Shown in pieces: positions 7,326 to 22,104 of a DNA stretch of 35,942 nt; the stretch's first letter is position 1, and every line of letters begins with the position of its first letter. Source of the stretch: Verrucomicrobiaceae bacterium. Lineage in GTDB: Bacteria > Verrucomicrobiota > Verrucomicrobiia > Chthoniobacterales > JAATET01. The stretch spans positions 1 to 35,942 of the forward strand of contig JAIYAZ010000053.1 in NCBI GenBank assembly GCA_027488755.1, read 5' to 3'. A model generated the notes under the pieces. That model was not told the DNA's origin and did no database searches. It saw only the letters and a list, made by a program, of their open reading frames with translations. Made by a program: the position numbers and the translations under genes.

Positions 7326-7344
7326 GGCTAGCTGCTAGCTAGCC
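7326..7344. repeat. Perfect hairpin over the ankyrin gene stop codon
   Basis: GGCTAGC (7326-7332) and GCTAGCC (7338-7344) form a perfect 7-bp stem with loop TGCTA, which contains the stop codon of the minus-strand ankyrin gene (7335-7337). There is no T-run, so it is at most a weak terminator; it may instead be a regulator site between the ankyrin and sigma-like genes. Confidence 0.5.
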
Positions 7345-9662
7345 CCACTTCTCGCATCGGCCTCGCTCAGCAGGCTTTTCCAGTTCGCCTTGAGCATACG
7401 AATGAAGTTTTCTGCGACCGAAGCTAGTCGTCGGAGCTGAAGGCTCGCGGTGTCTGGAACGGGCGTTTCCCTGACTAGGGCGATGAGCATCTCAAAGCCG
7501 TAGATCGAAGTTTCCAGCTTGTTCAGAAGGGCGTCTGCCATTCCCGCGCCGAACTCCACTGCCACGATTTCGACGAGGCCCGCGAATAGGATTCGATCAG
7601 GGGGAGTCAGACCAAGCATCCGAAGACGGGCCAGATTCAACGTCCGCTCACAGTTCCGAATCGGCCAGGCCAGCGATGTCAGAGAGACCTCAGGGTTGGG
7701 TCCATCGAGCTCCTTTCGGAAGTCAGCGCAACCATCCCACGCTTCCACGATCTGGCCCTGCGCAATGCAAAGAATTTCGCCCACCGTCAAACACCGCTCC
7801 TTCTCAAAAAGCTGATAGATCAGTTCCCCTACCCCGGCGCTTTTTGCGACGACGGCAAGGTCCAATTCTTCAAAAAGACCGGGATACGCGAACGGGCTTA
7901 CGTCGCCCTTGAGGGCCCGGCGAATAATTCTCAAAGAATCTCCCTCATCTGCAGACCACAAGTGTCTGAACGTGTTCTCGGGTTGGAGTCGCACCCCCGG
8001 CTCCTTGCTAGTTTCCGGTACCGGAACACCATCCTCATCAAGTTGGCGACGCACCGAAGAAAGCTCAATGGAATCGGGCTTAAAGAATCGGTTGATGCGC
8101 GTAACCGATGACGTGCAACGCGCATTCCGCGCGATCAAAAGATCGAGGACCAACGGGTTTCCACCCAGCAGAGCTGCCTGAGCCGGAGTCAAAAGCAGCG
8201 GAAACTCCACGACGCTGTCCCAGGAGATCATAAAAATCGATTCTCCACCGAAGCCCCAACGCCACACGATTCCTGGTTGGTTGGGGTCTGCACCCAGATC
8301 AAGCAAAAGCTCAACCCGCTCGATGTCGCCACCTTTGATTGCCTCAAGAAGCGGAAGCTTTCCCGAGTTGTCGGGGTGATTCACCAAATCTGGCGTGATC
8401 CACTGGCGGCAGAGATACAGGTCGGCCGTCTCAAGATGGTGGAGTCCAGTTGCTCCATAGGCACTGCGAATCTCGCCAAAACCACATCGGCTAAACACCG
8501 CTTCCGCAGCGTCACCTGAGCGCAGAGATCCCGAGAATACGACCGGGGTGCAATCGCTGTCGTTGCAAGGCATCGCGGGATCCGCGCCGGCATCAAGCAG
8601 CAGAGCCGAAATGCGGGCATTACCCAACGCGAGTTGAAGCGGAAACGTCGAACCACCCCACGTCATCTCTGCCACGTAGGGAATCGGCAGATTGGGACTC
8701 GCGCCCCGCTGCAGAAGCAGCCGACAGATCTCCAGTTGCCCGTATCGCACCGCCTCGGTCAAAGCCGTGGCGTGCCCGTAGACCGCAAAGTTCGGGGGGA
8801 ACCCCGCATCAAGCATCCGCGCGACTTCTTCCCCATTCCCGTCTCGGCAGGCTTTAAGTAAGGGGCTGTAATCGATCGCACCCGCAGACCTGAGAAGATC
8901 GGCGATCCGCCGGGCTCGCGCCACCCACGTCGCGGAATCCTCCGCCATGCAGAAGTCATCCTGTCGAAAACTGCGATGACACCCCCCCGCAAATCCCAGT
9001 TCGTCGGGCAGGTCATCCGCATTCTCCATCGCGATGCCGAGCGGGGTTTCGGTGATGTGCGCAACCGGCACAGACTCACGATAAATGTTGCCGATGTAGG
9101 ACAGGATTGTTCGGACGAACTGCTCGTCATTGTCCACCACGGCACGTTGGAGAAGATGGCCGTGGCTTGGATGCGTCACCTCCGGGTAGATTTCTCCGAT
9201 CCAGAAGAGGTAAAAAATTATCAAAAGCTCATTGTTGCGATGGGGACCAGGGACCGGAAACCTTGCCCGCATCCATTCCCGGAACCCCATCTGGTCGGGA
9301 AACGGAGCCTGCGAAGTGAACTTCAGAATCGGGCTGCCAGCTTTACCCTCCAACCACCAAAACAATTCCAGCATTCCCGGACCGCCGAGTCCATTGAGGG
9401 AATCCACCAAAAGAACTTCGCCCGCAGCAAGCCGAACAGCGGCGTCATCGGAGAGATTGAGAAACGCGGATCGCCAAATGCTCGCGACCCACGTCGATTC
9501 TGCAGTCGAATCGTCGAGGGTATGGAATTTCAGCGTTTCCTCCGGCGGGTAGTTCTCCAGTAGCGACTCGCTCTTAACCTCCACCCGAGTCGGAAACTCC
9601 CGGGCGGGAATGAGCTTGGCAGGGGAAGTGGCGGGACGATCTGACGATGAGGACTGGTTCAT
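7335..9662 (-). CDS. Ankyrin-repeat protein, 775 aa
   Basis: A large protein whose middle holds ankyrin repeats: SPLLKACRDGNGEEVARMLDAG, ATALTEAVRYGQLEICRLLLQRGASPN, FPLQLALGNARISALLLDAGADP and LPLLEAIKGGDIERVELLLDLGADPNQP, roughly residues 265-480, with a further degenerate unit after LLLTPAQAALLGGNPLVLDLLIARNA. The first 250 residues and the last 250 have no domain I recognise. Ankyrin repeats are protein-binding scaffolds; the partner is unknown. No signal peptide is visible, so it is probably cytoplasmic. The gene is on the same strand as the sigma-like gene, 84 bases downstream of it, and diverges from the nuclease-helicase pair. A GAGG lies four bases before the ATG. Confidence 0.85.
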   Translation of the reverse strand: MNQSSSSDRPATSPAKLIPAREFPTRVEVKSESLLENYPPEETLKFHTLDDSTAESTWVASIWRSAFLNLSDDAAVRLAAGEVLLVDSLNGLGGPGMLELFWWLEGKAGSPILKFTSQAPFPDQMGFREWMRARFPVPGPHRNNELLIIFYLFWIGEIYPEVTHPSHGHLLQRAVVDNDEQFVRTILSYIGNIYRESVPVAHITETPLGIAMENADDLPDELGFAGGCHRSFRQDDFCMAEDSATWVARARRIADLLRSAGAIDYSPLLKACRDGNGEEVARMLDAGFPPNFAVYGHATALTEAVRYGQLEICRLLLQRGASPNLPIPYVAEMTWGGSTFPLQLALGNARISALLLDAGADPAMPCNDSDCTPVVFSGSLRSGDAAEAVFSRCGFGEIRSAYGATGLHHLETADLYLCRQWITPDLVNHPDNSGKLPLLEAIKGGDIERVELLLDLGADPNQPGIVWRWGFGGESIFMISWDSVVEFPLLLTPAQAALLGGNPLVLDLLIARNARCTSSVTRINRFFKPDSIELSSVRRQLDEDGVPVPETSKEPGVRLQPENTFRHLWSADEGDSLRIIRRALKGDVSPFAYPGLFEELDLAVVAKSAGVGELIYQLFEKERCLTVGEILCIAQGQIVEAWDGCADFRKELDGPNPEVSLTSLAWPIRNCERTLNLARLRMLGLTPPDRILFAGLVEIVAVEFGAGMADALLNKLETSIYGFEMLIALVRETPVPDTASLQLRRLASVAENFIRMLKANWKSLLSEADARSGAS

Positions 9663-9778
9663 GCCGCCTCATAGTCATCACCGACAGAACTGCGCCAAAG
9701 TTTTCTCGGCCTTTAGTTTGGCAAGTCGGGAAATCTTGTCGCTTTATTCACGGCAACATAACTTCGGTCCTTCCCGAC

Positions 9779-11377
9779 ATGCCCGACGCATCTCTTCCCT
9801 CAAGTTACCGAAGGCCTTCGACCGAGGAGCTTGATCGCGAGCCTGCCGTCTGGGAGTCGGAGGATCACGAGTCTCCAGTGCCGACGGCAGGCGATGATAC
9901 TGGGAAAAAGATCTCCCCAACCGCGCTCGCCCGCACCAGCCAGTGTCTGCTGCGAGGACTCTGGGCCGTTCAGGGCGTTGCGGGGATCGGGCCGTCTCCG
10001 TTTACTCAAGCGACATTCCAGGATGGCAAGGAATTCGAGAGGTTGCTCCTTGAACCTAAAGCGAAAGAAATTTGGATCCGCGCGCTGCATCTTTCTCTGC
10101 GCATCGAACTTCCGTCGGACCTCCCGATCCACAAGGGAAAGGAGCTGAAAATCACCTCCGGTGAGTCAGCTCAGACATTTTTCGAGCGGGCCGCGAAAGA
10201 CTTTTCGGATACCATCAAAGACAAGAGCGCCCCCTTTGCGATCCACGAACCGACGCTTGCCTGCAATGAGGCTGGAGCCGCCTTGCGTGGAAAACCCGAC
10301 CTGCTTATCTGGACGGGAGCCCAGTGGCTAATCGCGGACATCAAGTGCTCCGAGGAAGCACGGCGCACCCACGGCATCCAGATCGCCGCCTATGCGCGCA
10401 TGCTCAAGGCGATGCGCCCAAATGAGCCGATTGACCCGCGCGGTGTCGTTATCCACTGCGCAGGCGGCTATCGATTCACAGCGGATTCGTCCCCTTCAGA
10501 CCGAGCCACGACTCTTTCGCATACCCAAGCCACGCCGTTCCCGATCGCCGCTCTCACCCCATTTGTCGAAGAGGAAATCTCTTTCCTCCTCGATGCCCAT
10601 GGGAAATCCGAAGCGAGAGCTGTCGCCGAAGCAGTCTTCTCGTCCGTCTGCAACGAATGCGAATTCCGTTACCGTTGCTACCCGCGCTTCCTCGAGTCGA
10701 AGCATGTCTCCCTTGTTCCACTCCTGAAGGCCGAGCTGGATGTCATCATCGGCGTGGGGATCACCACAATTGACGATCTCACCGATTCCATCGGGTCGCT
10801 TGAGAGTAAAGAATATGAGACCCTGCTCGAACTCAAAGAGGGCTCCACCCTGCAACTCCGTTTCCTCCGTGAAAAAGCGGAGAAAGTGTTGGCGAGCGGT
10901 CTGTATTCAGCCTGGCGCGCGGCCCCGGATGCGACCCAAACCCCCCTCTTTTTCGTGTCCATCGGTGACGAATACCTATTCGAACCCGCTTTGACGCCTG
11001 AGACGCAACCGACCTGTCTCGTGGTCTACTCCGAGGCCGAGCGCCGCCGCGCCTGGGCGGAAATGAAGAATGTTCGGGAAGGCTGGGGCATCCCGGAATT
11101 CGTCCTCAGCAAGGAAATCCAGCAGACCCTCCACGGCCCGATCCCCAGCCTCACCCTCCGCCCACTTGCGGGCTTTCTCGAATGGGCCAAGGGCCGGCAA
11201 TCGCTCGCGAATTTACAAGACTGGCTTTTGCGGAACCACTCGGACAGCCCCGAGAATTACGAGAAATCCCTCCAGGAATCCACCGACCTCAAACCGCGAC
11301 TCAAAGAACTCATGATCGTCTGGGACTACCTCCAATCCGCAGACATCACGTTTTCCATTACCCCCTTGGTCCGATGA
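9779..11377 (+). CDS. PD-(D/E)XK nuclease with Cas4/AddB-like Fe-S cysteines
   Basis: A RecB-family nuclease of 532 residues from the ATG at 9779. The catalytic motifs are GKPD (171-174), ADIKC (D187-x-K189) and HGIQIAAYARML (Q201, Y205). Four cysteines are spaced as in Cas4 and AddB iron-sulphur nucleases: C56, then C291-x2-C294-x5-C300. The C-terminal 230 residues have no clear known domain. Such enzymes degrade or resect DNA ends, usually with a helicase, and here a Dna2-like helicase gene overlaps the stop codon (ATGA). Together they resemble a eukaryotic Dna2 or an AddAB split differently. The open frame starts at 9647, but that start would overlap the divergent ankyrin gene's start, so 9779 is preferred; no ribosome site decides it. 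Confidence 0.85.
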   Translation: MPDASLPSSYRRPSTEELDREPAVWESEDHESPVPTAGDDTGKKISPTALARTSQCLLRGLWAVQGVAGIGPSPFTQATFQDGKEFERLLLEPKAKEIWIRALHLSLRIELPSDLPIHKGKELKITSGESAQTFFERAAKDFSDTIKDKSAPFAIHEPTLACNEAGAALRGKPDLLIWTGAQWLIADIKCSEEARRTHGIQIAAYARMLKAMRPNEPIDPRGVVIHCAGGYRFTADSSPSDRATTLSHTQATPFPIAALTPFVEEEISFLLDAHGKSEARAVAEAVFSSVCNECEFRYRCYPRFLESKHVSLVPLLKAELDVIIGVGITTIDDLTDSIGSLESKEYETLLELKEGSTLQLRFLREKAEKVLASGLYSAWRAAPDATQTPLFFVSIGDEYLFEPALTPETQPTCLVVYSEAERRRAWAEMKNVREGWGIPEFVLSKEIQQTLHGPIPSLTLRPLAGFLEWAKGRQSLANLQDWLLRNHSDSPENYEKSLQESTDLKPRLKELMIVWDYLQSADITFSITPLVR

Positions 11378-13527
11378 AAAAACCCTTCGCCGACTTCCTT
11401 GCTGCTGCGAGGATTGAGCATGCAGCCTGGCTCGAAAAGCTCGATGCGGAAGCGCGTCAGCCACTCGATGAGCTTCTCCGTCTCGGTAAAGTCGCTGGTC
11501 CGCTGGTTTGCGAGACCTGCTCGGGGCGCCAGGCCAGTTTCAAACCTCTGCCGGAGACCCCCTTCGACTGGGGAAAGGTGAATCCGGACGGATCTTTCCA
11601 TGTGATTTTACCGGATGAGAATTACTCCGCGAAATCGGCTCCGCCGAAAGGCGACCTTACACCTGAGGATCACCCAAAAAACTTCAAAGCGGGTAAAGAT
11701 TTGCAACTGACAGTTGGGGCAACCTACCTCTTCGCTCCTAGTGGTATCGATTCGACTACGCAGACAATCAAAATCCTGAAGACATCCCCCCAGGAAGAAC
11801 TTTGGCCCGACGCGGCAGCCGCAGTTCCTCCCACCGAGGCCGAAACCTCATCAACAGCTTACAATCGGGCCTTTGACGCTTGCATGGCCGAGAATATACT
11901 GATTTTTGCCATCAAAGGGCCGCCTGGCACGGGCAAAACCGACCTCCTTGCCGACGTGGCTCTCGCTCTGGCCGCTAGAGGAAAAAATGTCGGCATAGTC
12001 ACGGTAAGCCATGCTGCCGTAAACAACGCGTTAGGCCGAATAGCCGAGAAGTCATCTGGTAAAGGCCTAAAAATTTACAAGCATAGCGGCAAGGATCCCA
12101 AGTTAGCCGGGGTGACTCACAAGAAGATCACTTTTACTGATCGCCCTAATATCTGGGGGGCCGTGATCCTCTCCGCCTCTCACATGTATGGAGAGCAGAA
12201 GCATGCTGGAGGCAAACTCGGCTTCAAACACGGAGACTGCGACGTCCTACTCGTCGACGAAGCTGGCCAAGTACCCGCATTCGAAGCCGCCGCGTTGAGC
12301 AAGCTAGCCAAGCGCGTGATCCTCTTCGGCGACGAGGACCAACTCCCGAATATCTGCCACGGGCAGCACCCGCCCGGGTCCCACGGCGATTCCTCAGCCA
12401 TGCGCTACCTGCGCGATGCGCTCCCCGGCCTAACGATTCCACTCGAGATCTCTCACCGGATGAACAGAGACATCTGCGGGATCATCCGGGGCCACGTTTA
12501 TCCGCTCATTAAACTCCAGCCCGGGAAAAATGCGGACGCCCACTTGCTGGAAGAAGGGATTAGCTTTCCCTCGCTCGTCAAGGATGCCTTCTCCCCTCCA
12601 CACCCGCGCCTCTCCCGATCGGAGAAGGAAGCCGAGCGTGTCGTGGAATGGGTCCAGCGCCTGCTGAAAATGCAGGTTTTAGTTGAGGGCCTGCCTGCTC
12701 GTCCAATGACCACAGAGGACATCGCCATCCTCACCCCGTTCCGTGCTCACGCAGCCGCCATCAAATCCGCTCTAGTCAAAGCCGAAATCCCTGCCCTCGA
12801 CAAACTCCGCATCGGCACGGTTGATAAAATGCAGGGCCAGGGAGCAGCCGTCGTCATCTACTCCCTCGCCTCCTCGAGCAAGGACTACATCGCCGCACAA
12901 ACCGAGTGGCTCATGTCAACTAACCGCTGGAACGTCGCTATTTCCCGAGCCGTGGCCTGCGCGATCGTGGTCGGTGACATCGACGCCCACCTCTCCGCCA
13001 TCCCGAAAGCGCTAAACGGCATAGCGGCTCAGCAGAAAATCCGAAGCCTGTTGGACGATAAGAATTGGAAAGTCTTGGAGCCCACCCAAGCCCTTGCACC
13101 CAACCCGTCACCACTTGGCTGTACGCCTGCGCCTCCCTTGTACACACCTCCCGCGTCAGCATCTCGGCCAGCCCCACGCCCGGCGAGAATCCCCCTTCAC
13201 GGCGGGCTTTCGATTCAGGTCAACCCGCATGCGAAGAGCAAAACGGTCTATCTCAAACTCCGCCAAAAAGTGGCGCAAAACGAGATCACCCGAGCGGAAT
13301 TGGCCGTTCCCTTCGACGAGTGGCCGCAGCTTGTGGCCGCCTTGGAGGCCGCTGCCAAATCGGGAGCGATAGCGAACCAGATTCCATCGCTCGAAATCCA
13401 ACTCGCCGATGGGATCATTTCGCTGAAGGGACAACATGCGGGCAGGCCCAAGGGCCCAGTCGCTCTGGAGATCCCAATCAACGTCCTGCTCAGTCACTTG
13501 CATTTAATTGTCGCTGACCACGCTTGA
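11374..13527 (+). CDS. Superfamily 1 helicase, Dna2/UPF1-like
   Basis: A 717-residue SF1 helicase. Motifs are I GPPGTGKTD (182-190), Ia IVTVSHAAVNN (about 208-218), II LLVDEAGQ (292-299), III FGDEDQLP (318-325), IV EISHRMN, V GTVDKMQGQGA and VI NVAISRA. The DEAGQ form and the GTVDKMQGQ motif place it near the SF1B Dna2/UPF1/SMUBP group rather than UvrD. An N-terminal CETC may be a lone zinc knuckle, and about 150 C-terminal residues after VI, including a proline-rich linker, are not recognised. The start at 11374 was chosen because its ATGA overlaps the nuclease stop, implying coupled translation. A four-gene reverse-transcriptase cluster follows on the same strand after 50 bases. Confidence 0.9.
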   Translation: MKKPFADFLAAARIEHAAWLEKLDAEARQPLDELLRLGKVAGPLVCETCSGRQASFKPLPETPFDWGKVNPDGSFHVILPDENYSAKSAPPKGDLTPEDHPKNFKAGKDLQLTVGATYLFAPSGIDSTTQTIKILKTSPQEELWPDAAAAVPPTEAETSSTAYNRAFDACMAENILIFAIKGPPGTGKTDLLADVALALAARGKNVGIVTVSHAAVNNALGRIAEKSSGKGLKIYKHSGKDPKLAGVTHKKITFTDRPNIWGAVILSASHMYGEQKHAGGKLGFKHGDCDVLLVDEAGQVPAFEAAALSKLAKRVILFGDEDQLPNICHGQHPPGSHGDSSAMRYLRDALPGLTIPLEISHRMNRDICGIIRGHVYPLIKLQPGKNADAHLLEEGISFPSLVKDAFSPPHPRLSRSEKEAERVVEWVQRLLKMQVLVEGLPARPMTTEDIAILTPFRAHAAAIKSALVKAEIPALDKLRIGTVDKMQGQGAAVVIYSLASSSKDYIAAQTEWLMSTNRWNVAISRAVACAIVVGDIDAHLSAIPKALNGIAAQQKIRSLLDDKNWKVLEPTQALAPNPSPLGCTPAPPLYTPPASASRPAPRPARIPLHGGLSIQVNPHAKSKTVYLKLRQKVAQNEITRAELAVPFDEWPQLVAALEAAAKSGAIANQIPSLEIQLADGIISLKGQHAGRPKGPVALEIPINVLLSHLHLIVADHA

Positions 13528-13555
13528 TCTCGGAAAACTAGCAAACTGCATAAAA
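13524..13555 (+). promoter_or_regulatory. Possible promoter of the RT cluster
   Basis: In the AT-rich 50-base gap after the helicase gene, TTGATC (13524-13529) is followed 19 bases later by CATAAA (13549-13554). Spacing is slightly long and the -10 match is modest. If real, the RT cluster can be transcribed independently of the nuclease-helicase pair. Confidence 0.25.
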
Positions 13556-13577
13556 GACAAAACGCTTATAACCATCT

Positions 13578-14387
13578 ATGACAATACTAAGCTGGAATGT
13601 TGGAACAATCTATCACGGCTCGCGCCAGTCATTTTTTTTTGATGTATTTAACAAACATGTTCGCTATGGGGAAAATTCACATGACATCTACTGCCTCCAA
13701 GAAGTCCCCTTAGCACCTCCGAGTCATCACGGGAAATATGTCCATGCAGGATGCTTTGCCGAAGGCAGGCAGAATGGTTTTTTAAATGACTATTATATAG
13801 TGCATTCTGTCGGAAATGAATACTGCATGATCACCTTGTTGCGAAAGAGTCTTTTTTCGCGCCCTTCTTGTGAGACCATTAGCATTAATCATAACTTTCC
13901 TTTTGCTCAGAAGATTTTACTGAAGCCGGAAAAAGAAAACGGGTTTGCGGAGTTTTCCCTCTTCAACGTTCACCTAATATCTTTCAAAAAGGGAAGCAAA
14001 GATGAGCCTGAAGTAGAATTAGTTAAAGTCACAAAAGATCGTAATAACCAAATACGCGTTCTTGAAGAGCTTTCAAAAGACGGCGACTATTTCTGCGGGG
14101 ATTTTAATATGATCCGAAAAGCTAACGATAATCGACCTGGAATGAATAATTCAGTTGAGTGGCTCAAAATAGCGGGGAAACCGGGCGAGACTTACTTCAA
14201 ATTCGAAAAGGGAAATTACACTCCCGAAAAGGGAAATTACACCCCTAAGGAGTATGATTACATTGGTGTTCGCTGCGCTGATCAAACCCCGCCCCCATTT
14301 GATAGAGAAGTGTCAACTCCGGGAAGGTCGGGAAGTATTGGTTCATGGCGGCACCATCCGATTGTCGCAGACATTAGCATCGCTTAA
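13578..14387 (+). CDS. Endonuclease/exonuclease/phosphatase (EEP) superfamily protein
   Basis: A 269-residue protein with all catalytic blocks of the DNase I/APE1-like EEP fold: LSWNVG (N7), IYCLQEV (E42), LFNVHL (H132), CGDFNM (D175, N177), EYDYIG (D227) and WRHHPIVAD (H260). The last block usually reads SDH; here His replaces the Asp. Members cleave DNA or RNA phosphodiesters or phosphoinositides; beside a reverse transcriptase a nucleic-acid substrate is the natural guess. The gene is visibly AT-richer than the helicase gene before it, suggesting separate acquisition. A 21-bp tandem duplication lies directly before the DYI block. The stop is three bases from the next gene's ATG, so the two are surely one operon. 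Confidence 0.85.
   Translation: MTILSWNVGTIYHGSRQSFFFDVFNKHVRYGENSHDIYCLQEVPLAPPSHHGKYVHAGCFAEGRQNGFLNDYYIVHSVGNEYCMITLLRKSLFSRPSCETISINHNFPFAQKILLKPEKENGFAEFSLFNVHLISFKKGSKDEPEVELVKVTKDRNNQIRVLEELSKDGDYFCGDFNMIRKANDNRPGMNNSVEWLKIAGKPGETYFKFEKGNYTPEKGNYTPKEYDYIGVRCADQTPPPFDREVSTPGRSGSIGSWRHHPIVADISIA
14205..14246 (+). repeat. 21-bp tandem duplication in the EEP gene
   Basis: Two 21-bp copies (14205-14225 and 14226-14246), 19 of 21 bases identical, encode EKGNYTP twice. The copies lie directly before the catalytic YDYIG block and keep the frame. Confidence 0.9.
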
Positions 14388-14390
14388 AAA

Positions 14391-14954
14391 ATGAACGCCA
14401 AGAAGATCACCATTTACGGAGAAGCCACCCAACCTGGTGTTTGGGTTTACGTAGCAAAGATATCACGCTTCGGATCCTATTTTCTATATGTGGGTAAGAC
14501 TGGGGTTCAGCACGAGGGCATACCCACGTCGCCGCTCCAAAGGCTGGCTGCTCACATCAATCAAGATGAGTTCTTCAACGGTATTTCCACACACATCGAA
14601 AGACGTGGTTGGATCCTTTCGCAGTGCCACCTAGAATTCTGGTGCTACGGTCCGCTTGAAGAACTCAAATCCTGCGCGGGAAAGAACTGGGATGAATTGA
14701 ATGCAATCGCACTTCAGGTGGAGAGTAGCCTAGCCTCGATTGTCAAAGGCGCAGGCTATGAAGTACTTGGCCAGCACGGCGACTCCGCACTAGTTGCGGA
14801 TTCTGAAGAGCCGCGTTTCTCTGCCAACAATGTCTTGGCTCAGATCATCCCTGATCTCAACAGCAGACTCAGGGTTATAGGGGAAGCCGACGACTCTCCC
14901 GAAGACGACTCTCCCGAGGACGACTCTCCCGAGGACGAAACGCCTAAATCATAA
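14391..14954 (+). CDS. GIY-YIG-like nuclease domain protein
   Basis: A 187-residue protein. The first 120 residues match a divergent GIY-YIG fold: GVWVYVAKI (16-24, the 'GIY' strand), FLYVGKTG (31-38, the 'YIG' strand), SPLQRLAAH (48-55, with the catalytic-position Arg 51 and a His), and LQVESSLASIV (109-118, with Glu 111 at the metal-binding position). GIY-YIG enzymes cut one DNA strand, as in homing endonucleases, UvrC and Penelope-like retroelements. The C-terminus is a very acidic tail made of a repeated DDSPE pentapeptide. The start three bases after the EEP stop, and the RT start 24 bases past its own stop, indicate one transcript. The fold call rests on these motifs only; a structure prediction would settle it. 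Confidence 0.65.
   Translation: MNAKKITIYGEATQPGVWVYVAKISRFGSYFLYVGKTGVQHEGIPTSPLQRLAAHINQDEFFNGISTHIERRGWILSQCHLEFWCYGPLEELKSCAGKNWDELNAIALQVESSLASIVKGAGYEVLGQHGDSALVADSEEPRFSANNVLAQIIPDLNSRLRVIGEADDSPEDDSPEDDSPEDETPKS
14889..14933 (+). repeat. 15-bp tandem repeat, three copies
   Basis: Three 15-bp units (14889-14903, 14904-14918, 14919-14933), identical except for the last base of the first, encode DDSPE three times at the acidic C-terminus of the GIY-YIG-like protein. A partial fourth unit follows. Copy number could vary by slippage. Confidence 0.9.
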
Positions 14955-14978
14955 TCTTTGCTATGGCGGAGTCGCTCT

Positions 14979-15842
14979 ATGAGCGTAGAAGAAAAACAAG
15001 CGGATTACATGAGGCAGGCCATTTATCGAGCGATTTATGATCGGCGTAACTCATGGCATGCCAAGTCTTTGCCAGAGGAGGCAATTTCGACTGGAGACAT
15101 TGAATCGGCACTTTCCGACTTCAACAGGTGGTCGGCGATTCTCGGGCAGGACGTAGCAAAGGAAATCGAGGCCAAAGCAAGTAACGGTCGCGGGTATTGG
15201 CTCTCGATCCTACCCCTCCGGCATTTCGCGATCCGTTACTATGCCGTGATGTGTTTCGCTCCGCATGCGGCCGGCCTTTGGCATTCACGCCTTGGCAGAG
15301 ACTATCTCTCTTGTTCGGGCATCCACTCTCTTTTCCTAGGCCGGGTGAGGGAAAACACCGACTCCTACAAGGCATGGCAGATAAACCAGAGAAGTAGGTT
15401 TGTTCTAAAATTCGATATCCGGGGCTTCTACCAATCGATCCGGCATGATTTTCTTGTCGAGCAGTTAACCGCGCTCTGTAGCGTCGGGAATGCGGAAACC
15501 CAGCGAATGCTCCGGCTCCTTCCGACAATTTTACGATACCCCTATCGCAGCACCAGCGAACAGCAAATCAAGCACTGCGAGATTGGGCTACCGATCGGAA
15601 ACACCACCGAGCGTTTTTTTTCAAACCTATACCTCTCGTCCGTTGACGTTTACTTGCTAGATCAACGCAAGGTTACCTCCTGCCGCCGCCTTGATGATAT
15701 TCGTGTCTTCGCAGATGATGCTACTCACCTTCAGGATATCCGTGAAGGATTGGCAGACAAACTTGAGCGCTTGGGTATGTCTGTCAACGTGGAGAAAACC
15801 AAGATATTGAGAAGGAGTACAACCAATCCATCGTTGACATAA
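14979..15842 (+). CDS. Reverse transcriptase, short palm-only form
   Basis: A 287-residue reverse transcriptase, started at the ATG at 14979 because GGCGGAG lies seven bases upstream. RT motifs: A, FVLKFDIRGFYQSI (catalytic D146); B, GLPIGN (203-208) leading to NLYLSSVD; C, RVFADD (F244-A-D-D247, FADD where most bacterial RTs have YADD); D, LERLGMSVNVEKTK ending near 275. The protein stops about 12 residues past motif D, so no motif E or thumb is seen. The GLPIGN form resembles diversity-generating-retroelement and unknown-group RTs more than group II intron maturases (QG form). No maturase X domain or HNH domain is present. It is the third gene of a cluster with EEP and GIY-YIG proteins. The N-terminal 80 residues are not recognised. 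Confidence 0.85.
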   Translation: MSVEEKQADYMRQAIYRAIYDRRNSWHAKSLPEEAISTGDIESALSDFNRWSAILGQDVAKEIEAKASNGRGYWLSILPLRHFAIRYYAVMCFAPHAAGLWHSRLGRDYLSCSGIHSLFLGRVRENTDSYKAWQINQRSRFVLKFDIRGFYQSIRHDFLVEQLTALCSVGNAETQRMLRLLPTILRYPYRSTSEQQIKHCEIGLPIGNTTERFFSNLYLSSVDVYLLDQRKVTSCRRLDDIRVFADDATHLQDIREGLADKLERLGMSVNVEKTKILRRSTTNPSLT

Positions 15843-15900
15843 AGCTGGATCTCGTCATTTGCTTGATGACCAAGTCTTTGCCTGCTACCAGAATATCCCC

Positions 15901-16653
15901 ATGCCAACTCTTGCCAACCTCCAAAGATACCGACAATTACGGAGTGAGCCACGCACCAACTCCAACGGCGACAAGTATCTTGCCCTTGAAAGCCTCTGGA
16001 GGAAGCCAGATTCGAAGTTAGAACCGATGGGCTGGTTTGTTCTCTATCCCAATTCGGCGGAACAAATTTTGAAGCAACTTGAGGAGTTTCAGGTCTCGTT
16101 CTCTTCTTCCGGTGCGGCTCTCGGAACCTTGGCTGGAAAGACCGCTGCCGAGGGCTGGCGCAAGGGACCACGCCGCGGTGGCTTGTTCCTCCATGCGGAG
16201 GAGTTCTATGGACGGAAGCACGTCGTCATTACATTCCAACCACCCAAGGCTAATCAATATTCCTCGGTCAGGATCGATGCCGCAGACATCCCTGCCGTTG
16301 TCTCCTTCATCCGAAGCGAACTCGCTGCCCTCGCCGCGCCAGTGCCTCCGGCGACTCCAGTGGGTTCTTCCGTGCCCGTGCCTTCGTCCTTATTCCTCGA
16401 CCCTTCAGAGACGGAGGATCGGTGCTATGGAGACAATCCGGAAGCAGAGGCGGAACTAGAGCGAGAGGAGCAGGAGAGAGCTCTGCAGGAGGAGCGAGAG
16501 TCAGAAGAAATCGCCGACAAGGCTGAAGAGTGGTCGGAGAGAGAAGCGGAAGCCGAGGAAATCTTCCGGGAAAAGAAAGAGGATTACTCAAGGTCAATAG
16601 AGGAGGCCTTCAGATCCGGAGAAGAAGGGTGGGCTTACTCAGATGATGAATAA
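15901..16653 (+). CDS. Unknown protein with acidic coiled-coil tail
   Basis: I do not recognise this 250-residue protein. The first 155 residues look globular, with aromatic clusters (PMGWFVLYPNSAEQILKQL, then GRKHVVITFQPPKANQY). A proline/valine-rich linker follows (about 155-180), then an almost uninterrupted E/R/K-rich helix (residues about 185-245) that should form a coiled coil. It begins 58 bases after the RT stop, or 16 bases if the in-frame TTG at 15859 is used; neither has a good ribosome site. Operon position suggests a partner of the RT, perhaps supplying a nucleic-acid- or protein-binding surface the short RT lacks, but that is a guess. Upstream of 15859 the frame is closed by a TGA at 15835. 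Confidence 0.65.
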   Translation: MPTLANLQRYRQLRSEPRTNSNGDKYLALESLWRKPDSKLEPMGWFVLYPNSAEQILKQLEEFQVSFSSSGAALGTLAGKTAAEGWRKGPRRGGLFLHAEEFYGRKHVVITFQPPKANQYSSVRIDAADIPAVVSFIRSELAALAAPVPPATPVGSSVPVPSSLFLDPSETEDRCYGDNPEAEAELEREEQERALQEERESEEIADKAEEWSEREAEAEEIFREKKEDYSRSIEEAFRSGEEGWAYSDDE

Positions 16654-16687
16654 GCCGAATGAATTTGCAGCGCATTGCGCGGCACTA

Positions 16688-16763
16688 CGCTCGATTTAAA
16701 GAACACCCACCTCTTTACAACGGCCGCTGGCTCATCGATACGAGCGCACCGAAAAGTTTATCG
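16688..16763 (+). pseudogene. Decayed fragment of an aspartyl-protease-like gene
   Basis: This stretch aligns by eye with 17606-17696 inside the intact aspartyl-protease-like gene: shared blocks are CGCTCGA..TTTA, CCACCTCTTT, CGCTGGCTC and TCGATAC, with a net loss of about 11 bases that breaks the frame. Translated across the break it reads LDLKNTHLFT then NGRWLIDTSAPKS, against LEFINGHLFL then GSRWLVDTGAPTS. It lies in the 236-base gap before vapB and so flanks vapBC opposite the intact copy. The remaining gap holds no other gene. Confidence 0.7.
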
Positions 16764-16854
16764 GAGTGGAACGCCGGGGCAGATCCGGGGCAGGCATACT
16801 GATCCGTTCAGCACCACCCGGCTCCGGGCTACTTCTTTGGGGATACACCCTCCC

Positions 16855-16877
16855 TTGACACGCGGCGCGGGTAAAAT
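16855..16877 (+). promoter_or_regulatory. Promoter-like boxes before vapB (bad spacing)
   Basis: A perfect TTGACA (16855-16860) and a TAAAAT (16872-16877) lie just before the vapB start at 16890, but are only 11 bases apart, too close to act together as a sigma-70 promoter. One of them is probably used with an unseen partner box. Transcripts would be nearly leaderless. Confidence 0.25.
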
Positions 16878-16889
16878 GGATCTTACTTC

Positions 16890-17147
16890 ATGCTTACCAA
16901 GGTATCAAGTAGGGGGCAGACCGTGATTCCTGTGGCGATTCGGGAACAGGCGCAAGTCGACACCGGAGACGAACTGGAGGTGGGGTATTACGGGGGAATG
17001 ATCATCATGCGCAAGCGTGAGGCATTGACCCCGAAACGCGTTCGTTCGTTGTTGCTGGCGGGTGCGCGTCTGCCAGAGATGAAGCCTGCGGATGAGCAGG
17101 CGGTTGAGGGTGCTCTCGAGCGAGTAAGGCGTAGCGCGCGCCGGTGA
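16890..17147 (+). CDS. vapB: AbrB/MazE-type antitoxin (VapB-like)
   Basis: An 85-residue protein with the swapped-hairpin AbrB DNA-binding domain in the first 45 residues: TKVSSRGQTVIPVAIREQAQVDTGDELEV, then the GMIIMRK strand. The C-terminal half (EMKPADEQAVEGALERVRRSARR) is the likely toxin-binding helix. It should neutralise the PIN toxin encoded next and repress their joint promoter. Its TGA overlaps the GTG start of the toxin gene (GTGA), typical of a co-regulated toxin-antitoxin pair. No Shine-Dalgarno site is visible before the ATG. Confidence 0.85.
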   Translation: MLTKVSSRGQTVIPVAIREQAQVDTGDELEVGYYGGMIIMRKREALTPKRVRSLLLAGARLPEMKPADEQAVEGALERVRRSARR

Positions 17148-17548
17148 AGGTCGTCTTCGATACAATCGTGGTGGCGAGCGCCTGCCTCTGGCGTGGAGCG
17201 CCGTTTGATTGTCTGGCCGCCTGGGCCGATGGGAGTGTCGAAGCGTTTATCAGCCCGCCTTTGCTGGCGGAGTATGAGGAGACCTTCGAGGAATTGAGAG
17301 AGGATTACCCCACGCGCCCCTGCGTGGACTGGGTCGCCGCGCTGAGATCCTCGGCTGGTTTGGTTTTTCCGGTCGAGCGGGCCACCGGGGCGGTTGCCGA
17401 TCCGTTTGACGAAATGGATCTGGAATGCGCCCTAGCCGCTCATGCAAGCATCATCATCAGCGGCGATAAAAAACACCTCTTGCCGCTCGGAAACTTCCGA
17501 AACATCCCGATCATGAGCCCGTCCGATTTTCTCCGGCACCTTGGCTGA
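17144..17548 (+). CDS. vapC: PIN-domain toxin (VapC-like, COG1569 type)
   Basis: A 134-residue PIN-domain protein from a GTG that overlaps the antitoxin stop. Residues that would make the metal site are D6 (VVFDTIVV), the glutamate in LLAEYEETF (about residue 43), D94 in DEMDLECALAAHA, and D107 in IISGDKKHLLPL. The ending IPIMSPSDFLRHL is typical of the 'putative toxin-antitoxin system toxin component, PIN family' group. VapC-type toxins are ribonucleases that cut tRNA or rRNA; this one's target is unknown. In most family members position 7 is Asn (DTN); here it is followed by T-I, so residue 8 is Ile in place of the Asn, which might weaken activity. Confidence 0.85.
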   Translation: MKVVFDTIVVASACLWRGAPFDCLAAWADGSVEAFISPPLLAEYEETFEELREDYPTRPCVDWVAALRSSAGLVFPVERATGAVADPFDEMDLECALAAHASIIISGDKKHLLPLGNFRNIPIMSPSDFLRHLG

Positions 17549-17591
17549 TTCGGAGTTCGTAATCGCTTCAACCCGTAGCCTCCCCTACCCC

Positions 17592-18260
17592 ATGCCCGAC
17601 CTTCCGCTCGAGTTTATCAACGGCCACCTCTTTCTGATCCTCGACGGCAGCCGCTGGCTCGTCGATACCGGCGCGCCGACGAGTTTCGGCGAGGGTTCGT
17701 GCCACCTTATTGACAACGGGCAGCGCGCGATGCCGAAAGGCTACATGGGCCTGACAGCCGCCGCTCTTTCCGGGTTTGTCGGGGAGGAATGCCAGGGACT
17801 GATCGGAGCAGACGTATTGAACGGCTTTGACCACGTGATCGACGTTCCGGCTGGGATCTGGACGGTCTCCGACCAAAGTCTCGAACACCCGGGCAAAAAC
17901 CTGGTTCTAGACTACTTCATGGGCATTCCGATCGTGACAGCGACGATCGCTGGAGCGGAGCGGCGTCTCTTTTTCGATACCGGCGCGCAGGTGTCGTATT
18001 TCCAGGACGAGGCGCTGGCGGATTTTCCCACGTCGGGCGTGGTCGATGACTTTTATCCCGGTTTCGGCAGTTTCCAGACGGCGACGCATGCCTTGCCGGT
18101 CATGCTGGCCGGCGAGACCGTGACGCTCCGCTGCGGATCCCTGCCCGGAATGCTCGGCATGTCGTTAATGATGGCGGATGTGAAGGGAATCCTCGGGAAC
18201 GAGATCCTGCGCGAGCGGATCGTCGGGTTTTTCCCGAAAAGGCGGATCCTCCGCGTTTGA
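17592..18260 (+). CDS. Retropepsin/pepsin-like aspartyl protease-like protein
   Basis: A 222-residue protein with two aspartyl-protease signatures: WLVDTGAPTS (D-T-G near residue 24) and LFFDTGAQVSYF (near residue 127), each followed by a hydrophobic strand pattern and a later ILGNEILR/GLIGADVLN (G-x-x-x-L) element. The two similar halves suggest a bilobal enzyme made by internal duplication, like a compact pepsin, rather than a retropepsin homodimer. No signal peptide is seen, so it may act in the cytoplasm. The ATG at 17592 was preferred to the upstream TTG at 17541, which would overlap vapC; neither has a ribosome site. A broken copy of its 5' part lies at 16688-16763. Confidence 0.65.
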   Translation: MPDLPLEFINGHLFLILDGSRWLVDTGAPTSFGEGSCHLIDNGQRAMPKGYMGLTAAALSGFVGEECQGLIGADVLNGFDHVIDVPAGIWTVSDQSLEHPGKNLVLDYFMGIPIVTATIAGAERRLFFDTGAQVSYFQDEALADFPTSGVVDDFYPGFGSFQTATHALPVMLAGETVTLRCGSLPGMLGMSLMMADVKGILGNEILRERIVGFFPKRRILRV

Positions 18261-18448
18261 CCGGGTGTGGTGGGGCCAATGCCTGCCGTGGCCTGATCAC
18301 TCCCCTCCCCACTCCTCCGATTCTTGGTCTGAGTGGCAGAGAGTTTTGCTCGAAAGATTTTCCAACGCGCACATGAGCACTTTCCGCATCGAGCGGTAAG
18401 ATATCGATTTTCACAAAACACCAAAAAGGCTAGATTCTACATTCCCCG

Positions 18449-19207
18449 ATGAAGACTTCCCCGCTGTATCCGCCCATGCTCGCTGCCTTGGAGGCCGTTT
18501 ATCCGACTCGCTATCTGGTTGAAGCCGAGGCGGGCGTCGAAGGCGTCGATTTCGTGTTCAAGCAGAAGATCGAGCGACCGGACAATGGAACCACAAGGAC
18601 GTCCTACAGGGTCTTTGGGATAACGACCGGCGACTGGGTGAAAGTGAAGAAGAATTCGTATTATAAAGTATCGAACTTATGGTTCGGGTATAATCGCCTA
18701 ATTGATTCCGCTACCGTCTTTGTGGAAAAAAAATACCCATCCCAATCCGCTGAGATCATTAGGAAAGAAGCGCAAAAGATGGTCAGCGATCGGCTCAATA
18801 AGGAGTTTCCAATACAATATTCCACCATGAACAACTGCGCGAACTACTTGGTCACGGAAAAAGATCAAGGTGTCCCGGACTGGAAGAAGATGGACAATTT
18901 AGCCGGGTCTTTGGCGGGCCGATTCGGAATGGCCCCTGGGGCGGTCACGCTGATCGTGGTGACAGATGGTGACCACGCCCCCAGTCCTTCCAAGCAGGGG
19001 CTCTACGTTAATGACATCCAGTTCGAGCATGTCGACAGCCTTGTCAAAATGCTCAATTCGCTTGAGTGCGTCAAAGATCTGAGTGTCGGAGTTACCGACC
19101 GTCCTCCCGGGGCAAAAGTAACCCAACTCACGAAAATGCTAGAACAAAATCGCATGGGCACAAGCACCTCGATCGTTGCGAAGGCCGATATCGACCGCGA
19201 GGTCTGA
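18449..19207 (+). CDS. Hypothetical protein, 252 aa
   Basis: I do not recognise this protein. The N-terminal third (LVEAEAGVEGVDFVFKQKIERPD) and the middle (YYKVSNLWFGYNRLIDSATVFVEKKYPSQSAEII) look like an alpha/beta domain. A central VTLIVVTDGDHAPSPS segment at about 170-185 resembles a beta-strand ending in an acidic TDGD loop, as in von Willebrand A-type or Toprim-like folds, but other motifs for those are missing. It has no signal peptide or membrane helix. The middle of the gene is AT-richer than its ends. Its TGA (19205-19207) directly touches the stop codon of the converging gene at 19208. The 188 bases before it contain no gene or clear promoter. Confidence 0.6.
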   Translation: MKTSPLYPPMLAALEAVYPTRYLVEAEAGVEGVDFVFKQKIERPDNGTTRTSYRVFGITTGDWVKVKKNSYYKVSNLWFGYNRLIDSATVFVEKKYPSQSAEIIRKEAQKMVSDRLNKEFPIQYSTMNNCANYLVTEKDQGVPDWKKMDNLAGSLAGRFGMAPGAVTLIVVTDGDHAPSPSKQGLYVNDIQFEHVDSLVKMLNSLECVKDLSVGVTDRPPGAKVTQLTKMLEQNRMGTSTSIVAKADIDREV

Positions 19208-19729
19208 TCAAACCGGGTCGGTTGGTGTTTTGGAACCCGCGGATGCTTTTGCGACTGCTGGTTTGTCGTCTTTGGGCGGCGTGGCATTGAGCCATTGATG
19301 GCCATTTACATCCGGTTTTATCTTAACCGAAAGGCGGTGTTTCTGGACGAAGCCGGCGATCGTATCGGTGTATCCTTCGTTACTCTTGAGTCCTTTGGAT
19401 TTGAGATGCTCGAAGATGGCGGCCTGATCCGCGCCGAACTCCAAACCAAGTTCAGCGAGTTTAATTGCGTAGTTGCCAAATTTGTTCAGTTCAGTGTCCT
19501 CACATCGGGCCAGAGCGTAGTCGAGAGTCAGGGCGGAAAGCGGCCGACACGGGCGGAACGAGCGCGAGGCTGTGTCCCAGAACTCAAGCGTCCGCTTCAG
19601 CACGCAGACCATTTCGCTCGTCCCCTCTGGCCAGCAATTGAGCGCCGTCCAGCCTTCGGCCCCGAGGCGATTAAGTTCTTCTTCGATTCCGGAGGTCGCG
19701 CTACGCAGGAGTTTGAATTCTTCGCTCAT
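19208..19729 (-). CDS. DUF4177-like N-terminal domain protein
   Basis: A 173-residue protein. Residues 1-47 (EEFKLLRSATSGIEEELNRLGAEGWTALNCWPEG, then MVCVLKR) match the pattern of DUF4177 domains: a strand, a helix with 'LN.LG.EGW', and a final strand ending in LKR. The remainder, with an LDYALARCEDTELNKFGNYAIKLAELGLEFGADQAAIFEHLKSKGLK stretch, is helical and unrecognised, and the last 25 residues are K/P/A-rich and probably disordered. It lies 25 bases downstream of the next gene on the same strand, so the two are likely one operon. Function is unknown. Confidence 0.6.
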   Translation of the reverse strand: MSEEFKLLRSATSGIEEELNRLGAEGWTALNCWPEGTSEMVCVLKRTLEFWDTASRSFRPCRPLSALTLDYALARCEDTELNKFGNYAIKLAELGLEFGADQAAIFEHLKSKGLKSNEGYTDTIAGFVQKHRLSVKIKPDVNGHQWLNATPPKDDKPAVAKASAGSKTPTDPV

Positions 19730-19754
19730 GGGTCGATGGGGCAGGTAAGTTTGT

Positions 19755-20330
19755 TTAGTAAAGTTCGTCCGGTTTACGCTTATCCTGACGTTTGGCGTAA
19801 AGGCTCCAGGGATCCCCTAGCTTCCCCCGCTTGATCCAAAATGTGAACCCATAGCCAAAGGCGGATTTCCCGGTTCCGAAGGGCTTAAGATCGGGCTCAC
19901 CAAGGCCTGCTGCCAGTAGAAGTGCCCTCGTCTGGTCTTCGCGCATCCCGAACTTCCCGGCGAGCCAAGGAAGGGTGATGCAGTTGACGGAACCTCCGAT
20001 CCAGGCAAGCGCGAGCTTTAGGATGTTGTGCTTGCCGGGAGCCTCAGGCATGGCATGGGAGAGAGTCAAGCAGACCGAGGAGGATGTCCGGCCGGGAAAT
20101 GACGGACCGTAAGAGTCGATCTTCCAGCCGTCCGGCGGAGAAAAAAGAAACGCCTCTGGCGCGGGCAAGACGATCCGGCGAAAGATCCGTCCGACACGAG
20201 ACAGCGACCGGTCTACGAGAGCAAGATTCCGCGCCCGATTTATCGTTTCCTCATAGCCGTTCTCTGCTTCAGAGATGCGCCCGATTGCCATCGACTTCAT
20301 GCTCGCCAGAACGAGCGGGAACGCGAGCAT
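19755..20330 (-). CDS. Hypothetical protein, 191 aa (has a relic at the window's right end)
   Basis: I do not recognise the family. The protein begins MLAFPLVLASMKSMAIGRISEAENGYEETINRAR; the first ten residues are hydrophobic but too short for a clear signal peptide. The C-terminal half has LPWLAGKFGMREDQTRALLLAAGL, which has a helix-turn-helix-like rhythm, then a basic, aromatic end. The ATG at 20330 is chosen because a GGGA lies just upstream and because the relic at 35613-35728 keeps an ATG at the same place. It is followed on the same strand by the DUF4177-like gene. The 210 bases between its start and the plus-strand gene at 20541 show no gene. Confidence 0.6.
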   Translation of the reverse strand: MLAFPLVLASMKSMAIGRISEAENGYEETINRARNLALVDRSLSRVGRIFRRIVLPAPEAFLFSPPDGWKIDSYGPSFPGRTSSSVCLTLSHAMPEAPGKHNILKLALAWIGGSVNCITLPWLAGKFGMREDQTRALLLAAGLGEPDLKPFGTGKSAFGYGFTFWIKRGKLGDPWSLYAKRQDKRKPDELY

Positions 20331-20540
20331 AAATCCCGGCAAGAATCTTCATTTTCCGTCGTGTCATCACGCCCTCTGAGCCAGATAAGACCATTTTTTA
20401 TAACAACTTTAAGGTCCTTGTGTCCGGCGCGTAGCGGCTCCGGTAGGTTTTCTTTAGAGTCAGTTGTGGCCGGGCCTCGTGGCTCAATTGGACCGCCGCG
20501 AGCGGAAAACTTTCCTCTCTCCACAATTCCACCGCATAAA

Positions 20541-21149
20541 ATGACGGGTCTGCGCGTTGGGAAGACAATGGAATCACTCTATTCCCCGCCCCAAAATCGT
20601 CGTTGCTGGTTTTTGATTCGCCCCGAAGCGTTCTTTGCCGAACCCGAGGCCGTTGTTCAGGCCCTGCGCACGCATCCCTTGGTCCATCGTGTGAAATGGA
20701 GCAGTTTCGCTCCGACCGCTGTTGTTCATATGAAGGGGCCGGCCTTGGACCGCTTCCGTTCCCACGTTTCCTTGCTCGCGGCCTTGCTCGAACGATTGAT
20801 GCCGCGGAGCGACACCGGGGGGTTGCTTCTTGCGTTGGCCCTACACGACTTTCACCCTGAACCCGAGCTGCTTTCCAGCCTTGCCGTCTGCCCCATGCAC
20901 CGCCTCCCCATCTACCTCCGCATTCAAAAGGGAAATGACCCCGATCATTCCTTTGTGGTTGCCATCCATCGTCCGAATCCCCACACGGACCTCGTTTTCC
21001 AGGTCCGCCCGGATTGCCCCGCCGGCGAATGGGCGGGACTGCCAACAGAAACCCTCGAGGCCGGAACCCCCATCGGTCCATCGGAATTTTTTGCAGCCTT
21101 TCCCGACCCGAGGGAATTCGCCGACTCACTGCACTTATTGAACGGATGA
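20541..21149 (+). CDS. Hypothetical protein, 202 aa
   Basis: I do not recognise this protein. From the ATG at 20541 it has a compact, aromatic- and proline-rich sequence (CWFLIRPEAFFAEPEAVVQALRTHPLVHRVKWSSF), a strongly hydrophobic helix GGLLLALALHDFHPEPELLSSLAV at about 91-114, and an AGEWAGLPTETLEAGTPIG stretch near the C-terminus. There are no membrane anchors and no catalytic signature I can name. The frame is open upstream to 20361, but that part is basic and of poor quality; 20541 or 20568 (GGGAAG three bases upstream) are likelier starts. The metallopeptidase gene follows 79 bases later on the same strand. Confidence 0.5.
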   Translation: MTGLRVGKTMESLYSPPQNRRCWFLIRPEAFFAEPEAVVQALRTHPLVHRVKWSSFAPTAVVHMKGPALDRFRSHVSLLAALLERLMPRSDTGGLLLALALHDFHPEPELLSSLAVCPMHRLPIYLRIQKGNDPDHSFVVAIHRPNPHTDLVFQVRPDCPAGEWAGLPTETLEAGTPIGPSEFFAAFPDPREFADSLHLLNG

Positions 21150-21228
21150 AACGCAACTCCAAGCAAGCAATGACCTCGATAAAACCGGCTACTTGTGGTG
21201 AAGTGGTGCTTTCCATAAAGGAGGCGTC

Positions 21229-22104
21229 ATGAGTAATCGCACACTTCACGCCCCCAAGGATGTCCTTGCTGCGGCCAAGCGGGCGATGGAATTAACCTTG
21301 CCGTGTGAGGACAATGGAATCCGTTGGACCCGGAGAGAGCGATTGGATGCCATCGCCTCTGCGCTGAATGGCACGGCCTATTCTCTTCTTGGGAAGAGCG
21401 AACTGGCCTTCGTTTACCGTCACAGCGGGTATTCGAGAAAGAAGCCGACGATTCTCGTTTCGACCCACGTGGATTCCCTCTACGGGCAATACTTCGCTAG
21501 GAAGGTCGGTGCCGAAATTCACGGAACCTTTGACAATTCCGCAACCAATGGGGTGGTTGTAGAGCTAATGAGGCAGGGTAGTCTTCCCCCACAGGTGCTC
21601 GTGGCTTTTACCGGTGATGAGGAAGAAAATTCCCGGGGAGCCGACCAAACTGTGGAAATCCTTTCGCAGGGCGGCTTATTCAGCATGCTCGAACTCGTGA
21701 TGGTTCTAGACCTCACTGAGGAAGCCTATGGGCAGGCTGCCTTCACGCTGGAGAACTTGTTTGTTGAATCAAATCAGGCCGAGGCCCTTCTGCGGTTCTC
21801 TGGAAAGCGGGATCTGAAGTCCTATCTCACCACCATCTTGAAGGACGATGCTTGCCCCGGGATCAAAAAAACCACATCTTCGAAACCATCCTCGCATGAC
21901 TTGGTAGTTGTCATGAACGCTGCTCCCGATGAGTCCTGGCAATACGACGAGCATGATCTGAATTGCTTTTCCCTCTGCCTGCCCTGCCGGCCTCTTGATG
22001 GCGACATGCACAGCGATCTGGGCGTCGCCATACAATGCACCGCCTTTGAGCAGTATGCACTCGCGCTGAAACAGTTAGCCTCTGGAATCGCGAAATTTCG
22101 TTAA
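21229..22104 (+). CDS. M20/M28-like zinc metallopeptidase
   Basis: A 291-residue protein with the metal site of co-catalytic zinc peptidases: STHVDSLYG (H80, D82), GTFDNSATNGVV (D102, the bridging Asp), FTGDEEEN (E131 as likely base, E132 as ligand), VMVLDLTEE (Asp ligand) and a late GDMHSDLG (H ligand). The length and lack of a lid-dimerisation domain suit M28 or M42 better than classic M20. It probably removes amino acids or cleaves small peptides; no signal peptide is seen, so it is cytoplasmic. The start is well defined by AAAGGAGG five bases upstream, the best ribosome site in the window. Nothing in the neighbourhood points to a pathway. Confidence 0.75.
   Translation: MSNRTLHAPKDVLAAAKRAMELTLPCEDNGIRWTRRERLDAIASALNGTAYSLLGKSELAFVYRHSGYSRKKPTILVSTHVDSLYGQYFARKVGAEIHGTFDNSATNGVVVELMRQGSLPPQVLVAFTGDEEENSRGADQTVEILSQGGLFSMLELVMVLDLTEEAYGQAAFTLENLFVESNQAEALLRFSGKRDLKSYLTTILKDDACPGIKKTTSSKPSSHDLVVVMNAAPDESWQYDEHDLNCFSLCLPCRPLDGDMHSDLGVAIQCTAFEQYALALKQLASGIAKFR

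What the first reader, a model, noticed from the sequence alone, without database searches (positions are those of the whole stretch)
13578..16653. RT cluster that pairs one bacterial reverse transcriptase with both an EEP and a GIY-YIG nuclease
Seen: four same-strand genes with gaps of 3, 24 and 16-58 bases encode an EEP nuclease with all catalytic blocks, a GIY-YIG-like protein, an RT with motifs A-D, and an acidic coiled-coil protein; the block starts with an abrupt drop in GC. Known: LINE elements carry EEP (APE) endonucleases and Penelope-like elements carry GIY-YIG endonucleases to prime reverse transcription, while many bacterial unknown-group RTs act in phage defence. Inference: this is a defence or mobile system in which one or both nucleases nick DNA or process the RT product. 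I do not know of a described bacterial system with this gene set.
Basis: partly seen in the sequence, partly recalled or inferred. Interest (0 to 1): 0.85.

Follow-up and report, generated by a model that had tools for sequence, protein, structure and literature searches.

The report
Orphan reverse transcriptase beside two nucleases
One bacterium carries four tightly packed genes for a short, unclassifiable reverse transcriptase, two unrelated nuclease-like proteins and an acidic protein; the genes are real, but no second copy of the set was found in any genome searched, so it may be a rare new defence cassette or a chance neighbourhood of mobile genes.

Summary
The four same-strand ORFs are real. 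Protein 1 is an EEP-fold protein (profile-profile score 69.8; best of 60 shuffles 20.6), but the Asp of its last motif (SDH) is Arg. Protein 2 has a GIY-YIG fold (AlphaFold pLDDT 83.8; the 12 best VIA-align matches are all GIY-YIG nucleases, I-TevI Z 7.0) with the catalytic residues kept. Protein 3 is an RT with motifs A-D and the catalytic Asp residues. It fits no known RT group, scoring alike against UG and DGR profiles, and it stops just after motif D, with no thumb and no alpha-repeat domain. Protein 4, acidic, has no relatives.

None of 103 loci with related RTs has a GIY or EEP neighbour, and none of 90 loci of this GIY family has an RT or EEP neighbour. About 40% of the 84 scanned GIY loci lie in type I restriction-modification operons. 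No relative of the EEP or acidic protein turned up in about 800 related genomes. The GC drop covers the EEP gene only.

So it is a single-genome accessory gene cluster. A defence role is plausible but not demonstrated, and chance assembly is about as likely.

The parts
13578..14387 (+). EEP-fold protein, 269 aa; divergent; blocks SWNV, DIYCLQEV, NVHL, CGDFN, DYIGV kept, SDHxP reads WRHHP
   Evidence: hhalign against 29 EEP proteins from related genomes: probability 96.5, score 69.8, full length; 60 shuffles at most 20.6. EEP profile finds it at 4.3e-10 in the window. No Pfam match.
14391..14954 (+). GIY-YIG-fold protein, 187 aa, divergent member of a widespread solo GIY-YIG family; acidic repeat tail DDSPE
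   Evidence: Alignment with 62 relatives: G16, W18, Y33, G35, R51 invariant, Y20, H55 and E111 at least 90%. AlphaFold pLDDT 83.8. VIA-align top 12 all GIY-YIG nucleases, I-TevI Z 7.0, rmsd 2.7 over 88 residues.
14958..15842 (+). Reverse transcriptase core, 294 aa, motifs A-D, no thumb or C-terminal repeat domain
   Evidence: Pfam RVT_1 1.4e-13; PADLOC RT_UG34 7.8e-28 over residues 86-286; shortest tail after motif C of 81 RTs.
15859..16653 (+). Acidic protein, 264 aa, with a Glu-rich, probably helical C-terminus; no recognised family
   Evidence: ORF; codon-position GC typical of coding; no match in Pfam, PADLOC, NCBIfam, PHROGs, plasmids or PDB sequences.
9647..13527 (+). Upstream pair: PD-(D/E)XK (Cas4/RecB-like) nuclease and SF1 helicase, whose probable start at 11371 overlaps the nuclease stop; 50 bases before the EEP gene on the same strand. 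Possibly co-transcribed, membership of the cluster not shown
   Evidence: PDDEXK_1 1.2e-6; AAA_12 7.3e-19; plasmid relatives of the helicase are mostly TM0106-type RecB-nuclease/helicase proteins.

Best explanation
A rare accessory operon acting in conflict with phages or other mobile DNA. The RT would make a DNA product from an RNA or without a template. The GIY-YIG and EEP proteins would cut or trim nucleic acid (incoming DNA or the RT product). The acidic protein would be a partner or regulator, possibly standing in for the missing thumb. Shown: the genes, their folds, most catalytic residues and the operon-like spacing. Inferred: co-expression, enzymatic activity, joint function and defence.
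For: Same strand with gaps of 3 to 58 bases and little room for promoters between genes. Three nucleic-acid enzymes with catalytic residues largely intact. The RT core scores best with PADLOC defence-RT models (UG34, 7.8e-28). The GIY family sits in type I R-M operons in roughly 40% of 84 loci (hsdM in 35, hsdS in 36, hsdR in 35). The region is accessory: 19 kb around it has no DNA match in three genomes of the same genus, and the contig is rich in HipA, PIN/AbrB, helicase and nuclease genes. A thumb-less RT is possible: DRT3b lacks an alpha-helical thumb and uses its repeat domain instead (PMC13174585).
Against: No second instance anywhere. No RT-GIY or RT-EEP neighbourhood in 103 RT loci or 90 GIY loci. 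The EEP gene differs in composition from the other three. The RT has neither a thumb nor the alpha-repeat domain, so it may be inactive. No structured RNA signal in the only sizeable flank (fold z-score -0.17).
Confidence: 0.35

Rival explanations
1. Chance assembly in an accessory island. A solo GIY-YIG gene of a mobile family, a separately acquired EEP gene and a decaying, C-terminally truncated RT happen to lie together and have no joint function.
For: GIY relatives occur solo in many contexts. The EEP gene is compositionally distinct. The RT has the shortest C-terminus of 81 compared and a very long branch. No co-occurrence. A 54-base stretch resembling an aspartyl-protease gene lies just downstream, suggesting rearrangement.
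Against: Tight same-strand spacing of four uninterrupted ORFs with coding composition. Catalytic Asp residues of the RT and the GIY-YIG active-site residues are kept.
Confidence: 0.4
2. A retroelement in which one of the nucleases nicks target DNA to prime reverse transcription, in the way LINE (EEP) and Penelope-like (GIY-YIG) elements do.
For: The same enzyme pairings exist in eukaryotic retroelements (PMC1564403 for Penelope; LINE from general knowledge).
Against: One copy of the RT and of the EEP in the genome. Separate ORFs, not fusions. No repeats or RNA element at the edges. The GIY protein belongs to an R-M-associated family, not to a Penelope-linked one.
Confidence: 0.07
3. A relic of a diversity-generating retroelement whose RT remains.
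For: The RT core scores as well with a DGR profile (85.2 bits) as with a UG profile (86.4), shares the GLPIGN motif B, and falls loosely among DGR RTs in a tree (unsupported).
Against: No template/variable repeat pair within 13 kb and no Avd gene recognised. The branch is too long to place.
Confidence: 0.08

Closest known systems
UG/DRT reverse transcriptases (PADLOC RT_UG34 and others)
   Same: RT core and motifs; accessory location next to nuclease and helicase genes
   Different: Score at the level seen between different UG groups (5.8e-26 for a UG9 RT and 2.3e-24 for a Drt8 RT on the same model), whereas the RTs tested here score 1e-105 or better with their own group model; no alpha-repeat domain; nuclease neighbours of kinds I found described for no UG group in the papers searched
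Diversity-generating retroelement RTs
   Same: Core similarity of equal strength; GLPIGN motif
   Different: No TR/VR repeats and no Avd; thumb absent
Solo GIY-YIG family found in type I R-M operons (this work) and other defence GIY-YIG nucleases such as PD-T4-3
   Same: GIY protein aligned over its length with the core residues; PD-T4-3 is the third structural match (Z 5.5)
   Different: Only 18-29% identical to its family; TGDSSS motif replaced by TGVQHEG; lies next to an RT, not hsd genes
LINE and Penelope-like retroelements
   Same: Pair an RT with an EEP or a GIY-YIG nuclease
   Different: There the domains are fused, in eukaryotes, one nuclease per element, in mobile multi-copy elements; here separate single-copy genes in a bacterium

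Membership tests
GIY-YIG nuclease superfamily | GIY-YIG fold | tested here: met
   Model pLDDT 83.8; 12 best VIA-align matches are GIY-YIG nucleases, Z 3.8-7.0. Foldseek alone gave nothing; hhalign to UvrC sequences only was negative.
GIY-YIG nuclease superfamily | Catalytic Tyr, Tyr, Arg, Glu | tested here: met
   Y20, Y33, R51, E111 kept across the family; Y33 and R51 invariant in 63 sequences.
EEP superfamily | Profile similarity across all blocks | tested here: met
   hhalign 96.5%, score 69.8 against at most 20.6 in shuffles.
EEP superfamily | Complete active site including SDH | tested here: not met
   N, E, D, N, D and H are kept; the Asp of SDH is Arg.
EEP superfamily | EEP fold by structure prediction | tested here: inconclusive
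   Single-sequence model failed, pLDDT 33.
UG/DRT RT group UG34 | Score typical of group members | tested here: not met
   7.8e-28, at cross-group level.
UG/DRT RTs | C-terminal alpha-repeat domain | tested here: not met
   Protein ends 47 residues after motif C; no continuation in any frame.
Diversity-generating retroelement | Template/variable repeats and accessory protein | tested here: not met
   No such repeat in 9000-22000; no accessory gene recognised.
Group II intron | Intron RNA and maturase domain | tested here: not met
   No Rfam match; no sequence left after motif D for a maturase domain; TIGR04416 63.6 bits against cut-off 300.
Retron | Retron RT family and msr-msd RNA | tested here: not met
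   Retron model 32.4 bits against cut-off 235; no Rfam match. Many retron RNAs are not in Rfam, so the RNA part is weak.
Penelope-like or LINE element | Nuclease fused to RT in a mobile element | tested here: not met
   Separate ORFs, single copy.

The most novel reading that the evidence does not exclude
A new bacterial RT system in which a minimal RT without thumb works with an EEP protein, a GIY-YIG nuclease and an acidic partner, unlike any described retron, DRT or DGR.
Probability: 0.2. Interest if true: 0.85.

Novelty: new variant of a known kind. Interest (0 to 1): 0.42.

Why it matters
If the four genes work together, they would be, to my knowledge, the first bacterial RT system found to use both nuclease types that eukaryotic retroelements recruited separately, and a test of how short a working RT can be. 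If not, the case shows that a striking gene set in a defence-rich island can be accidental. The solo GIY-YIG family in type I R-M operons is a testable by-product of its own.

Tried and rejected
RT relatives by single-protein scans of viral and genome contigs: none confirmed. RT alignment scan of viral contigs: generic RTs only. EEP in phages and plasmids up to E 10: none. Foldseek on the GIY model: no significant match, yet VIA-align on the same candidates ranked GIY-YIG nucleases first. hhalign of the GIY family against UvrC N-domains: negative, so the fold claim rests on structure and residues. EEP single-sequence fold: useless. Idea that the acidic protein holds PC4/PUR-like ssDNA-binding repeats (e.g. 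GLFLHAEEFYGRKHVVITF): no support in Pfam or PDB sequences, and no PC4 profile could be built from relatives; kept as a lead only. Frameshift hiding the RT thumb: no signal in other frames. RNA in the 236-base downstream flank: z-score -0.17. Papers: no hit describing an RT with both nucleases, but the main UG/Abi classification paper is not held.

Full report
What is there. Four uninterrupted same-strand ORFs lie at 13578-14387, 14391-14954, 14958-15842 and 15859-16653, with gaps of 3, 3 (or 24) and 16 (or 58) bases. Their GC by codon position looks like coding sequence. The window is contig C91 (positions 1-35942) of a 3.5 Mb draft genome in 169 contigs. Genomes of the same class that turned up in the searches carry Verrucomicrobia titles in the named collection, so the host is most likely one too (inference).

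Protein 1 (EEP). No Pfam, PADLOC or PHROGs family is assigned (the one Pfam line, SspO at 0.17, is noise), and NCBIfam gives only a weak exodeoxyribonuclease III match, E 0.07. I built an alignment of 29 EEP proteins found with PF03372 in related genomes and compared it with the window protein: probability 96.5, score 69.8, aligned over the full length. The reversed sequence scored 11.8, 60 shuffles at most 20.6, and the other three proteins of the cluster at most 14.5. Motifs with the conserved N, E, D/N, D and H are in place; the Asp of the SDH motif is replaced by Arg. No relative was found in 388 genomes of the phylum, 384 of the class, 202 of the order (overlapping samples), or in phage and plasmid records.

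Protein 2 (GIY-YIG). Plasmid and class searches gave the first relatives. An alignment-based scan of species genomes gave 80 loci and viral contigs gave 4. The aligned family keeps G-x-W-x-Y, YVG-[RK]-TG, Arg51, His55 and Glu111. The AlphaFold model from 63 sequences has pLDDT 83.8 and the order strand, strand, helix, helix, strand, helix. VIA-align ranks I-TevI, a 5hmC-specific restriction endonuclease (PD-T4-3), UvrC, T4 EndoII and Slx1 in the first 12 places, Z 3.8 to 7.0; ribosomal proteins follow at 3.7, so the margin at the lower end is small and it is the consistency of the list that carries the claim. Nine of 63 members give weak Pfam GIY-YIG matches, best 0.015.

The family's usual company. 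In 84 scanned loci hsdM is found in 35, hsdS in 36 and hsdR in 35, often with the GIY gene between hsdS and hsdR. The rest sit in varied places: prophage-like genes, HNH-like genes, housekeeping operons. A GIY-YIG domain inserted in a type I HsdR was reported earlier (PMC1564403).

Protein 3 (RT). RVT_1 matches at 1.4e-13. Among PADLOC models UG34 is best at 7.8e-28, but RTs of other UG groups score about the same against UG34 (5.8e-26, 2.3e-24, 1.7e-22) while hitting their own model at 1e-105 or better. With profiles built here it scores 86.4 bits with UG, 85.2 with DGR and 61.4 with group II. In an 88-row tree its branch is 3.88 long and its place is unsupported. It is the only RVT_1 match in the genome. 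It ends 47 residues after motif C; 80 other RTs have at least 77, median 135, and no downstream frame resembles a thumb or repeat domain. Thumb-less RTs exist in DRT3b, but there the repeat domain takes the place (PMC13174585); here both are missing.

Protein 4. Acidic, with a Glu-rich C-terminus. No match in any library.

Is it a system? Profiles of the GIY family and of EEP proteins were run over the neighbourhoods of 103 RT loci, and profiles of RT and EEP over 90 GIY loci. Both gave zero, while in the window all three profiles hit. The neighbourhoods of the phylum RT loci reach only about 1.5 kb, others 6 to 8 kb, and all these RTs are distant relatives, so the test is fair for the families but says nothing about unsampled close kin. 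The EEP gene's composition sets it apart from the other three. Against pure chance stand the tight spacing and the intact ORFs.

Setting. 19 kb around the cluster has no DNA match in three congeneric genomes. The contig holds two HipA-type genes, a PIN/AbrB-like pair, a RecD2 helicase, a TrwB-like protein and a DnaB helicase. Directly upstream is a PD-(D/E)XK nuclease and SF1 helicase pair, related to TM0106-type proteins. No Rfam family, tRNA, terminal overlap or TR/VR repeat was found.

Verdict. The genes and folds are real; the partnership is unproven. I rate joint function in defence at 0.35, chance assembly at 0.40, a retroelement at 0.07 and a DGR relic at 0.08. The set is unlike any described system I could find, but a single genome and a possibly truncated RT keep the interest moderate.

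Noticed in passing
L125, L136, L140, L146, L156, L165, L185, L202 and others: A widespread solo GIY-YIG family lies inside type I restriction-modification operons in roughly 40% of 84 loci, often between hsdS and hsdR: a candidate accessory nuclease of type I R-M.
   Followed up: partly
9647-13527: PD-(D/E)XK (Cas4/RecB-like) nuclease overlapping an SF1 helicase, related to TM0106-type nuclease-helicase proteins; a split two-gene version 50 bases upstream of the EEP gene.
   Followed up: partly
20228-20330 and 35617-35717: A 103-base stretch repeated at 79% identity, once mid-contig and once near the right end.
   Followed up: no
16713-16766: Short stretch resembling the aspartyl-protease-like ORF at 17541-18260 (RWLIDTSAPKS against RWLVDTGAPTS), perhaps a gene remnant just downstream of the cluster.
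   Followed up: partly
22156-23175: A second AT-rich gene (GC at codon position 3 of 0.37) without a Pfam family, next to a DUF2779 gene.
   Followed up: no
5720-6496: Protein with a HAD domain of the Swiss Army Knife RNA repair type (5e-25).
   Followed up: no
7335-9662: Large ankyrin-repeat protein on the minus strand, divergent from the nuclease-helicase pair.
   Followed up: no
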